Shown here: piece after piece, positions 46,546 through 58,104 of the stretch
How the letters are laid out: each line of letters begins with the position of its first letter
How positions within the stretch are numbered: the first letter of the stretch is position 1
From: Chitinophagaceae bacterium
Lineage (GTDB): Bacteria > Bacteroidota > Bacteroidia > Chitinophagales > Chitinophagaceae
DNA: 64,000 bases
Reading direction: 5' to 3'
Assembly (NCBI GenBank): GCA_947446645.1
Contig: CANFHA010000017.1
Span: forward strand, 1-64,000
Notes under the pieces: generated by a model
What the model was told of the DNA's origin: nothing
What the model saw: only the letters and a program-made list of their open reading frames with translations
The model's database searches: none
Translations under genes and position numbers: made by a program

Positions 46546-47178
46546 CTATTTGTTCCACGACCTAAAGTCATGCTCCAGGTCTTGAAGCACATTATAAAAA
46601 CTCTTTGCCCAGTAATTGCGGAATCCCATGCCGCCTGGCGCGCCGCTCATGCGGTTAGCGGCCAGCATTTTTTTGCTGCCCATGTCTACAAAAGTCACCC
46701 ACATAGATGCGTCGCCCTTATTCTTGTTCATTCCTTCTACAAAGAATAGCAGGCCAATGCCTGTTTTGCCTTTAAAATCATATCTGGATACCAGGCTGGC
46801 GACATCTTGCTCGTTAAGCAGCCGGTAATCTTCTGCTTTAGCTGTAAAATATTCGGCGTTCGATTTCTCGTTTGCCGCTTGTGTCACTTCCAGCGCATAG
46901 TTTACATTGCTGCGTTGTACCGCCTCGGCTACGTTGTATTTCTTTTGCTCGGCAATAAACAAGTTGTTCCACCCAGGGAAATATTTATTGCGCATGTCGG
47001 CATTTGTTATTGTGCCTGCATCTTTAAATTGCGTCGCGGTTCCTACATACTTCAGATGCGTGAAATCAAGACCCAGCCAGGTGATCGGTGTATTGTTGAA
47101 TATGTCGGACCTGGTTTGGCTAAAGCCTGTTCCCGATATAAGAATAACCGCCAATAAAAACAGTATGTTTTTTCTCAT
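46546..47178 (-). CDS. Secreted protein, member of a tandem pair (ITWLGLD family)
   Basis: A 210-residue exported protein with signal MRKNILFLLAVILISGTGFSQ. The mature core begins TRSDIFNNTPITWLGLDFTHLKYVG and continues with LLNEQDVASLVSRYDFK, TGIGLLFFVEGMNKNKGDASMWVTFVDM and YWAKSFYNVLQDLEHDFRSW (each motif shown in part). The same blocks appear in the neighbour at 47245. I know of no assigned function; the family looks specific to Bacteroidota. The two genes lie head to tail, 66 bp apart, and clearly arose by duplication. Confidence 0.7.
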   Translation of the reverse strand: MRKNILFLLAVILISGTGFSQTRSDIFNNTPITWLGLDFTHLKYVGTATQFKDAGTITNADMRNKYFPGWNNLFIAEQKKYNVAEAVQRSNVNYALEVTQAANEKSNAEYFTAKAEDYRLLNEQDVASLVSRYDFKGKTGIGLLFFVEGMNKNKGDASMWVTFVDMGSKKMLAANRMSGAPGGMGFRNYWAKSFYNVLQDLEHDFRSWNK

Positions 47179-47244: not shown

Positions 47245-47898
47245 CTACTGCCATTCTCCCATATGCTCACCAACTAGTGCCATAGCATTGTAGAAGCTCT
47301 TTGCCCAGTAATCGTCAACTGTATTACCACCCGCAGGTGCTGTTATTCTCTTACTGAGCAGTACCGTCTTATTACTCATGTTTACAAAGGTCACCCACAT
47401 AGAGGTTTCGCCCTTATCCTTATTCATTCCCTCTACAAAAAACAGCAGGCCAATTCCTTTTTTGTGATTGAAGTCATATTTGGCAACAAGCGATGCAATT
47501 TGCTTTTCGGTTAGCAACTGATATTCGCTGATGTTGCCCCTGAATCGCTTGTTGTCCTTATCAGAGAAGTGTTGTTTTACTGAGTTGTAATTAATTTTGT
47601 TAGTTACTTCCGTGCCGGGCTGGCCGCCGTGTGTTGCCACCAACCTCGCTTTCTGCATGTCTTCCCGTTCAGAAGGCCCTACGAACATGTTGCTCCATTT
47701 CTGGAAATAGTAAAACAGCACAGGCGTGCTCACATCTCCCGTATCATCTGTTTTGGTTTTACTATTGATGTACTTTAACTGGCTGCAATCCAGTCCCAGC
47801 CACGTTATTGGCGTTTCGCTAAAGATATCATCGCGTGTCTGTGCGTGTGCCTCTGCAGCCACAAACATGGTTATCAGCAACAGTGCAATATGCTTCAT
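47245..47898 (-). CDS. Secreted paralogue of the 46546 protein
   Basis: A 217-residue exported protein with signal MKHIALLLITMFVAAEAHAQ. It shares with its neighbour the blocks TPITWLGLDCSQLKYIN, LLTEKQIASLVAKYDFN, KGIGLLFFVEGMNKDKGETS, SMWVTFVNM and DYWAKSFYNAMALVGEHM. The divergence is large outside these blocks, so the duplication is not recent. It is the first gene of the pair on the minus strand. The gene is divergent from rpsJ, and the rpsJ promoter region lies between them. Confidence 0.7.
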   Translation of the reverse strand: MKHIALLLITMFVAAEAHAQTRDDIFSETPITWLGLDCSQLKYINSKTKTDDTGDVSTPVLFYYFQKWSNMFVGPSEREDMQKARLVATHGGQPGTEVTNKINYNSVKQHFSDKDNKRFRGNISEYQLLTEKQIASLVAKYDFNHKKGIGLLFFVEGMNKDKGETSMWVTFVNMSNKTVLLSKRITAPAGGNTVDDYWAKSFYNAMALVGEHMGEWQ

Positions 47899-52161: not shown

Positions 52162-53034
52162 ATGGGTCAAAAATGTAATCCTATAGGTAACAGGTTGGGC
52201 ATCATCCGCGGATGGGACTCAATGTGGTATGGCGAGAAAAAGGACTTCGGCCAGAAACTGGTAGAAGATCACAAAATCCGCAACTACCTCAATGCGCGTA
52301 TCAACAAGGGCGGGATTTCCCGCATAGTAATAGAGCGTACTCTGGGTAAGCTGATCGTAACGATCCATACTTCAAAGCCTGGTATCATCATAGGTAAAGG
52401 CGGCACTGAAGTTGACCGTATCAAGGAAGAGCTGAAGAAGCTGACAAAGAAGGATGACGTGCAGATCAACATTATGGAGATCCGCCGCCCTGAACTGGAC
52501 GCTATGATAGTAGGTGAGACCATTGCCCGCCAGATAGAAGGCCGTGTAAGCTATAAGCGCGCTATTAAGATGGCGATCTCTACAGCTATGCGCATGGGTG
52601 CTGAGGGTATCAAAATTAAAGCAGGTGGCCGTCTCAACGGTTCTGAAATAGCACGTAGCGAAGAATTCAAACAAGGCCGTACTCCTTTGCATACTTTCCG
52701 TATGGATATCGATTACGCTTCTGTTTACGCAATGACCGTATATGGCAAAATAGGCTTGAAGATCTGGATATGTAAAGGTGAAGTGCTCGGTAAGCGCGAA
52801 CTGAATCCTAACTTCTCTGCTAACTCAGACAACCGCGGCAACCGTCCTACAGGTGGTTTCCAGGGTGAGTCTCGTGGTGGCGAGCGCGGAGAGCGTGGTG
52901 GTGACCGCAGAGGTGGTGATCGTGGCGGAGACCGTGGTGGTGATCGCGGCGGCAACCGTAGCGGTGGCACCGGTGGTAACCGTGGTGGTGCCGGCGGCGG
53001 ACGCACAGGCGGCGCAGCGGGTGGACGCAGATAA
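52162..53034 (+). CDS. rpsC: 30S ribosomal protein S3 with Arg/Gly-rich tail
   Basis: A 290-residue uS3 at the mRNA entry site. The KH domain has [20 protein letters not shown] (GKGG at 78-81) and the C-terminal S3 domain ends near residue 220 ([11 protein letters not shown]). Residues about 225-290 are an extra tail of Gly, Arg, Asp and Asn in [10 protein letters not shown]-like units, ending AAGGRR. This is longer than the E. coli protein by about 57 residues. The tail is in frame with the same codon choice as its neighbours, so it is not a sequencing joint. Confidence 0.96.
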
Positions 53035-55518: not shown

Positions 55519-55546
55519 CACGACTTACGACTTACGACTCACGACT
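55519..55546 (+). repeat. Four-unit 7-bp tandem repeat upstream of rpsN
   Basis: CACGACT-TACGACT-TACGACT-CACGACT, 28 bp, ending 11 bp before the rpsN ATG. Confidence 0.8.
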
Positions 55547-56332: not shown

Positions 56333-56423
56333 TAATAATAGAGGAAGGCTGACAATATTAAGTTCTCTATACGGTGACTGAACACGGCCTTTTTATTCCT
56401 TAATTTTAATTTTAATTTTTTTT

Positions 56424-58033: not shown

Positions 58034-58069
58034 TATCCACTCCGGTTCTTCTGTTGAAGAGCAATGGAT

Positions 58070-58104
58070 TTTGATTTTTGAATTTTTACTTTTGAATTTT
58101 ATAA
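58070..58104 (+). repeat. Period-7 AT-rich repeat before rpmD
   Basis: TTTGATT-TTTGAAT-TTTTACT-TTTGAAT-TTTATAA, 35 bp ending two bases before the rpmD ATG. Confidence 0.75.

What the first reader, a model, noticed from the sequence alone, without database searches (positions are those of the whole stretch)
52834..53031. Arg/Gly-rich tail on ribosomal protein S3
About 65 residues of GGDRGG-type units follow the normal S3 end. RGG-like tails bind RNA and can be methylated in other systems. At the mRNA entry site such a tail might aid mRNA capture in a phylum that does not use SD pairing.
Basis: partly seen in the sequence, partly recalled or inferred. Interest (0 to 1): 0.5.

Follow-up and report, generated by a model that had tools for sequence, protein, structure and literature searches.

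The report
Arginine-glycine tail on ribosomal protein S3
The small-subunit ribosomal protein S3 of this Bacteroidota bacterium ends in a floppy, arginine- and glycine-rich tail; across the sampled phylum such tails occur mostly in lineages that make little use of the usual ribosome-mRNA pairing signal, so the tail may help ribosomes catch mRNA another way, though this is not proven.

Summary
S3 (290 aa) matches the bacterial S3 model over residues 1-211; the other 79 are a junction (RELNPNF...) and a 66-residue Arg/Gly tail without lysine, predicted disordered. Complete S3s fetched from the genus (26 of 26), the family (30 of 30) and named relatives (80 of 80) all have it; length drifts, composition holds.

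SD-like leaders occur in 44 of 56 genomes with no or a short tail, but in 8 of 98 tailed ones. The link survives correction for ancestry (PGLS p=9e-4; 0 of 300 simulated traits match it), weaker with my first cut-off (p=0.021). It is presence/absence only: length and Arg number do not track SD use, some control proteins reach p 0.005-0.03, exceptions run both ways, and independent origins are few (perhaps three).

Best explanation: a disordered polycationic RNA-binding tail near the mRNA entry side that raises 30S-mRNA affinity where SD pairing is unused. RNA binding and position were not tested; methylation remains unsupported. S3 extensions as such are known.

The parts
52162..53034 (+). rpsC, ribosomal protein S3 (uS3), 290 aa with stop codon
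   Evidence: TIGR01009 E=5e-81; PF00189 and PF07650; S10-spc gene order
52162..52794 (+). canonical S3 body, residues 1-211
   Evidence: TIGR01009 matches residues 1-211 of 290; AlphaFold2 ten-residue block means 69-93 from residue 21 to 210
52795..52833 (+). junction [13 protein letters not shown], residues 212-224; (K)R-[DE]-L-[NS]-P-N recurs in many class Bacteroidia S3s seen
   Evidence: tails listed
52834..53031 (+). R/G-rich lysine-free low-complexity tail, residues 225-290, predicted disordered
   Evidence: ten-residue block means of pLDDT 40-50 over 221-290, with 234-289 all below 50
52873..53001 (+). imperfect 12-, 21- and 24-base tandem arrays that code part of the tail

Best explanation
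The tail is an intrinsically disordered, lysine-free R/G-rich extension of uS3, of the RGG/RG low-complexity kind. I think it most likely acts as a sticky polycation on the solvent side of the 30S head near the mRNA entry side: it raises the non-specific affinity of the subunit for single-stranded RNA, so that mRNA docks and stays long enough for start-codon selection in lineages where SD-ASD pairing is not used. Shown here: the tail exists, its composition is kept while its length drifts, it is predicted disordered, and its presence goes with weak SD leaders across the sampled phylum beyond shared ancestry. Inferred, not shown: RNA binding, location relative to the mRNA path (recalled from known ribosome structures), and the initiation role. 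Because the entry side meets mRNA downstream of the start codon while SD pairing acts on the upstream side, the tail could compensate for affinity but not for start-site choice.
For: Tail >=20 aa in 26 of 26 complete genus S3s, 30 of 30 family, 30 of 30 order, 24 of 24 class-call loci and 80 of 80 named relatives, but 17 of 30 phylum-call loci. Of 154 genomes, cut-off 25 aa: 56 tail-, mean ddG -1.95; 98 tail+, mean +0.87; SD-like (ddG<-1) in 44 of 56 against 8 of 98. Corrected for ancestry: PGLS slope 2.30, p=8.7e-4 (ddG) and 2.1e-3 (dG); without the inner Bacteroidia clade and L322 (n=111) p=6e-3; with GC as covariate p=5.5e-4; 0 of 300 simulated threshold traits reach the observed |t| 3.40 on ddG; Pagel-type dependent model LRT 21.9, p=2e-4. 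Two tail+ clades outside Bacteroidia and Rhodothermia, with unlike junctions, have weak SD: Chlorobia-like n=10 mean ddG 0.03 and family f123 n=8 mean -0.28, against -1.86 in each of the two main tail-less clades, n=12 and n=38. Published: Bacteroidia ribosomes occlude the ASD, and most Chlorobia mRNAs are SD-less (PMC9976891, passages).
Against: Presence only: tail length (PIC p=0.86, PGLS p=0.68), log length (PIC 0.18, PGLS 0.11) and Arg count (0.91, 0.61) do not track ddG. With the first cut-off (>=20 aa) the test was weaker: PIC p=0.067 (ddG) and 0.003 (dG); PGLS p=0.021 and 0.0025. Moving to 25 aa, chosen after seeing the data, reclassifies one genome (L368, a 22-aa tail that is not R/G). 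Control protein lengths: in PIC 3 of 16 reached p<0.05 on one measure (S19 0.016, L16 0.022, S17 0.0046); in PGLS 2 of 9 (S19 0.021, L16 0.015); in the two-trait test 1 of 5 (L4 0.031). Most controls were lengths, not presence/absence, so they do not match the S3 trait exactly. Exceptions: 12 of 56 tail- genomes lack SD and 8 of 98 tail+ keep it, most strongly family f38, L253/L254. Few independent origins. Genomes were picked by hand; the 20 were mostly picked for long S3 frames and their neighbours. Long S3 chains also occur in the PDB outside Bacteroidota, e.g. 274-275 aa (7kgb, 32nj) and 269 aa (8crx) (that these are actinobacteria that use SD is recalled).
Confidence: 0.38

Rival explanations
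1. General electrostatic tail: like many r-protein extensions it binds rRNA and helps 30S head assembly or stability, with no special role in initiation; its link with SD use reflects a few deep lineages.
For: Extensions of the 11 ribosomal proteins studied there are found throughout bacteria and not specific to sub-groups, and disrupting them affects fitness or survival in Mycoplasma pneumoniae (PMC9534751, passages); tails in SD-using family f38; long S3 chains outside the phylum; no dose effect of length or Arg.
Against: The link survives PGLS, a GC covariate and simulated traits, and length drifts freely, unlike what I would expect of a tail threaded through rRNA.
Confidence: 0.32
2. Condensate or polysome function: the tail makes ribosomes multivalent for RNA and tunes local crowding, polysomes or stress condensates rather than initiation.
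For: R/G low-complexity composition; another Bacteroidota RNA-binding protein, B. thetaiotaomicron Rho, condenses with RNA through a charged disordered region (PMC13269538, abstract and passages).
Against: No direct evidence; does not by itself predict the link with SD use.
Confidence: 0.12
3. Mostly neutral low-complexity DNA: slippage adds and removes GGT-GGT-GAC-CGT-like units at a tolerant C-terminus.
For: Tandem arrays; 48-99 aa length range among near relatives; 57-101 aa in the genus by another anchor.
Against: Never lost in 26 of 26 genus, 30 of 30 family and 80 of 80 named loci; Lys near zero, Arg share narrow, codons mixed; unlike junctions carry a similar kind of tail in other clades.
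Confidence: 0.13
4. Methylated RGG substrate: arginines are modified to regulate RNA binding, as in eukaryotic RGG proteins.
For: Motif resemblance only.
Against: No methyltransferase was identified; the single search (PRMT_C) rang in no control genome, so it shows nothing either way.
Confidence: 0.04

Closest known systems
uS3 of PDB 7jil (252 aa; F. johnsoniae per PMC9976891) and the 246-aa uS3 of 9i5v
   Same: same family; shared KGEVY-x-KRDL-x-P junction and a G-containing basic end
   Different: tails shorter, and Lys-containing in 7jil; whether they are resolved in the maps was not seen; the F. johnsoniae structure paper (10.1093/nar/gkaa1195, recalled) is not held
Disordered r-protein extensions, as catalogued in the Mycoplasma pneumoniae in-cell ribosome paper (PMC9534751, passages)
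   Same: terminal, mostly predicted disordered, frequent across bacteria; M. pneumoniae S3 itself has a 17-aa C-terminal extension over E. coli
   Different: not described as R/G-rich or set against SD use in the passages read; they report no sub-group specificity, while within this phylum I find a lineage pattern
RGG/RG low-complexity regions of RNA-binding proteins (recalled)
   Same: RGG and RG repeats, disorder prediction, net positive charge
   Different: interspersed with Asp/Glu; aromatic residues nearly absent (one Phe in residues 224-290); RNA binding and methylation untested; here on a core ribosomal protein

Membership tests
Bacterial ribosomal protein uS3 | full-length match to the bacterial S3 model and the S10-spc gene order | tested here: met
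   TIGR01009 271 bits over residues 1-211, cut-off 114.5; neighbours L22 and L16
RGG/RG low-complexity region | closely spaced RGG/RG repeats | tested here: met
   three overlapping RGGxRGG sites in the tail; Arg 17-28% and Gly 33-51% in 28 tails
RGG/RG low-complexity region | intrinsic disorder | tested here: met
   prediction only: residues 234-289 all below pLDDT 50
RGG/RG low-complexity region | binds RNA | not testable with these tools
   no binding data
RGG/RG low-complexity region | arginine methylation | tested here: inconclusive
   PRMT_C search silent in own genome and in all 14 controls
Compensator for missing SD pairing | presence goes with weak SD leaders beyond shared ancestry | tested here: met
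   PGLS p=8.7e-4, 0 of 300 simulated traits, LRT 21.9; weaker with the first cut-off, some control proteins also below 0.05, and no link with length
Compensator for missing SD pairing | removal lowers mRNA binding or initiation | not testable with these tools
   needs a mutant

The most novel reading that the evidence does not exclude
R/G-rich uS3 tails arose more than once within Bacteroidota (with three unlike junctions) as lineages dropped Shine-Dalgarno pairing, and act as a general mRNA-docking device on the 30S head: a proteinaceous, sequence-blind substitute for part of the affinity that SD-ASD pairing gives.
Probability: 0.25. Interest if true: 0.82.

Novelty: new variant of a known kind. 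Interest (0 to 1): 0.55.

Why it matters
How ribosomes that ignore SD sequences choose and hold mRNA is open; proposals in the passages I read name bS1, A-rich leaders and AUG depletion (PMC6847099, abstract and passages), not uS3. A conserved R/G tail on uS3 whose presence follows SD disuse within one phylum offers a concrete candidate that can be deleted in a laboratory strain. In ten answered paper searches I saw no listed paper on uS3 tails and SD use; most listings were capped and seen only as titles and abstract starts, and the library holds only open-licence PMC papers.

Tried and rejected
Paralogue or tail-sharing idea: no second S3 domain and no second tail found in the own genome. 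Dose effect of tail length, Arg, Gly or charge on SD use: none. Independent contrasts were weak, I think because each genome's SD score rests on about 16 starts; PGLS with a fitted lambda was then used, and both are reported. Rfam on the window: nothing at gathering scores. Arginine methyltransferase: uninformative. Minus-strand RSPP-rich ORF over the tail (52725-53006): mirror of the repeats, not taken as a gene. Solved structures were searched by sequence only; no fold search was run because the tail has no confident model.

Rows dropped before the 154-genome tests: of 162 (160 fetched regions, window, E. coli) E. coli was the outgroup; L298, L304, L354, L358 had fewer than 10 scored starts; L315, L320, L346, all long-tailed with weak SD, were lost to an anchor pattern, which works against the link. 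L5 starts were left out of the SD score. In one search the group labelled Rhodothermia (37) includes 4 loci that group with Bacteroidia, and L322 is in no group. The cut-off was changed from 20 to 25 aa after seeing the data. Regions were chosen by hand, one to a few per family, not at random; most was chosen for long S3 open frames and their neighbours.

Full report
What is there. The window carries a normal S10-spc ribosomal-protein operon. Its rpsC, 52162-53034 (+), codes 290 residues. The bacterial S3 model ends at residue 211, so 79 residues are extra: a junction [13 protein letters not shown] and then 66 residues of RGG-, GDR- and GNR-like units. Residues 224-290 are 30 Gly and 15 Arg with no Lys and net charge +8; the S3 body, residues 1-211, has 23 Lys and 17 Arg. 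AlphaFold2 on 50 aligned S3s gives ten-residue block means of pLDDT 40-50 over residues 221-290. The genome has one S3 C-domain. RGGxRGG as DNA matches four times: three times in this tail and once elsewhere in a frame that reads SGGHSGG; the total is not above the backwards-read control, so the clustering, not the count, is the point.

Conservation. Tail (>=20 residues after the last core strand): genus 26 of 26 complete S3s, own included, 2 more cut by contig ends; family 30 of 30; order 30 of 30; class- of 24; 80 of 80 named relatives from genome contigs, among them Flavipsychrobacter, Taibaiella, Chitinophaga and Niastella records; phylum- of 30. These loci are the best-scoring matches of each search, not random draws. 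Among 28 distinct tails of the genus and named near relatives the length runs from 48 to 99, Arg 17-28%, Gly 33-51%, Lys 0-2%, with Gly as GGT/GGC/GGA and Arg as CGT/CGC/AGA for the most part. Composition is kept, length is not. A single recent DNA repeat would not give mixed codons.

The sampled phylum is uneven: some lineages outside class Bacteroidia end S3 right after the core (for example GKRLSE). The control stretch often lies in the previous gene, so ddG is a relative score; plain dG is given beside it. E. coli scored 13 of 13 SD-like starts (dG at most -4.5) against 1 of 13 in control; the window genome 2 of 18 against 6 of 18. On 154 genomes SD-like leaders (mean ddG<-1) are found in 44 of 56 tail-less or short-tailed and 8 of 98 tailed genomes. 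Pooled starts: tail-less 536 of 868 against 0.31 background; inner Bacteroidia 76 of 705 against 0.26; family f123 34 of 115 against 0.19; Chlorobia-like 53 of 162 against 0.28; the remaining tailed group 166 of 608 against 0.30. Family f123 and the Chlorobia-like group therefore keep a slight excess of SD-like starts over background.

Correction for ancestry. A FastTree tree of 18 concatenated proteins (162 taxa) was used. With the first cut-off (20 aa) independent contrasts gave p=0.067 (ddG) and 0.003 (dG), PGLS p=0.021 and 0.0025. With 25 aa, which reclassifies only L368 (22 aa, not R/G-rich), PGLS gave p=8.7e-4 and 2.1e-3, and p=6e-3 (ddG) and 7e-3 (dG) without the inner Bacteroidia clade and L322; GC as covariate did not remove it (p=5.5e-4 and 4.8e-4; GC itself p=0.15 and 5.4e-4); 0 of 300 traits simulated on the same tree reached the observed t on ddG. 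A dependent two-trait model beat the independent one (LRT 21.9, p=2e-4; with an SD threshold of -0.5, LRT 21.1, p=3e-4). Its fitted rates put tail loss on SD-using backgrounds, faster SD loss on tailed ones and almost no tail gain, so tail loss in SD users is as good a story as repeated gain. Controls: in independent contrasts 3 of 16 other protein lengths fell below 0.05 on one measure (S19 0.016, L16 0.022, S17 0.0046); in PGLS 2 of 9 (S19, L16, about 0.02); in the two-trait test 1 of 5 (L4, 0.031). These controls were lengths or median splits, not presence/absence of a tail. Length, Arg number, Gly number and charge of the S3 tail show no link. Parsimony at 20 aa needs 5 changes; R/G or basic tails sit in three groups with unlike junctions: Bacteroidia plus Rhodothermia (often DLSPN), a Chlorobia-like clade (QRIDAIEEEE-like, then Arg-rich) and family f123 (GERRRRGGRGRGG-like).

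Exceptions. Tail and SD: L253, L254 (f38), and more weakly L257, L260, L337, L338, L350, L352. No tail and little SD (ddG about -0.5 or higher): L359, L362, L372, L373, L376, L378. Long uS3 chains in the PDB from outside Bacteroidota (organisms recalled) suggest that a tail is not a mark of SD disuse in general.

Reading. The tail is most likely an RNA-sticky disordered extension. Its place on ribosomes is recalled: uS3 lines the mRNA entry on the 30S head. That fits docking or holding of mRNA, with start choice left to leader composition and structure, as shown for F. johnsoniae (PMC6847099, abstract and passages); ASD occlusion by bS21, bS18 and bS6 (PMC9976891, passages) explains why pairing is out of use in Bacteroidia. 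The alternative that the tail simply serves rRNA or assembly remains nearly as likely. Methylation has no support here.

Known or new. Extensions of bacterial ribosomal proteins, S3 included, are in print (PMC9534751, passages). In my searches I saw no listed account of R/G tails on uS3 in Bacteroidota nor of their link with SD use; the listings were mostly capped, uS3 is not named in PMC9976891, and the F. johnsoniae structure paper is not held. I rate it a new variant of a known kind.

Noticed in passing
window 46546-47178 and 47245-47898 (-): Two neighbouring, related reading frames (210 and 217 aa) with signal-peptide-like starts and a shared DIF-x-x-TPITWLGLD motif, just upstream of S10 on the other strand: probably a tandem duplication of a secreted protein of unknown function.
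   Followed up: no
L349-L358 (family f123): Long S3 with a different junction (TPL-x-...-RPIVSAAGGERRRRGG-like) inside an otherwise mostly tail-less class; the order search returned only this family, and all 11 genomes have S3 open frames of at least 268 aa.
   Followed up: partly
L253, L254 (family f38): Strong SD-like leaders together with a 53-56-residue S3 tail that starts GKVDLTPQG and ends acidic: the clearest exception to the link.
   Followed up: partly
L245-L249, L266, L268 (Chlorobia-like): The tail begins with an acidic stretch (QR[IL]D-x-IEE...) before the Arg-rich part, unlike Bacteroidia tails.
   Followed up: no
window 52725-53006 (-): A 93-codon antisense frame reading as RSPP repeats; a mirror of the tail's DNA repeats, not taken as a gene.
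   Followed up: no
window 55520-55546, 56400-56419, 58068-58100: Short tandem repeats with units of 6, 7 or 14 bases in spacers of the ribosomal operon.
   Followed up: no
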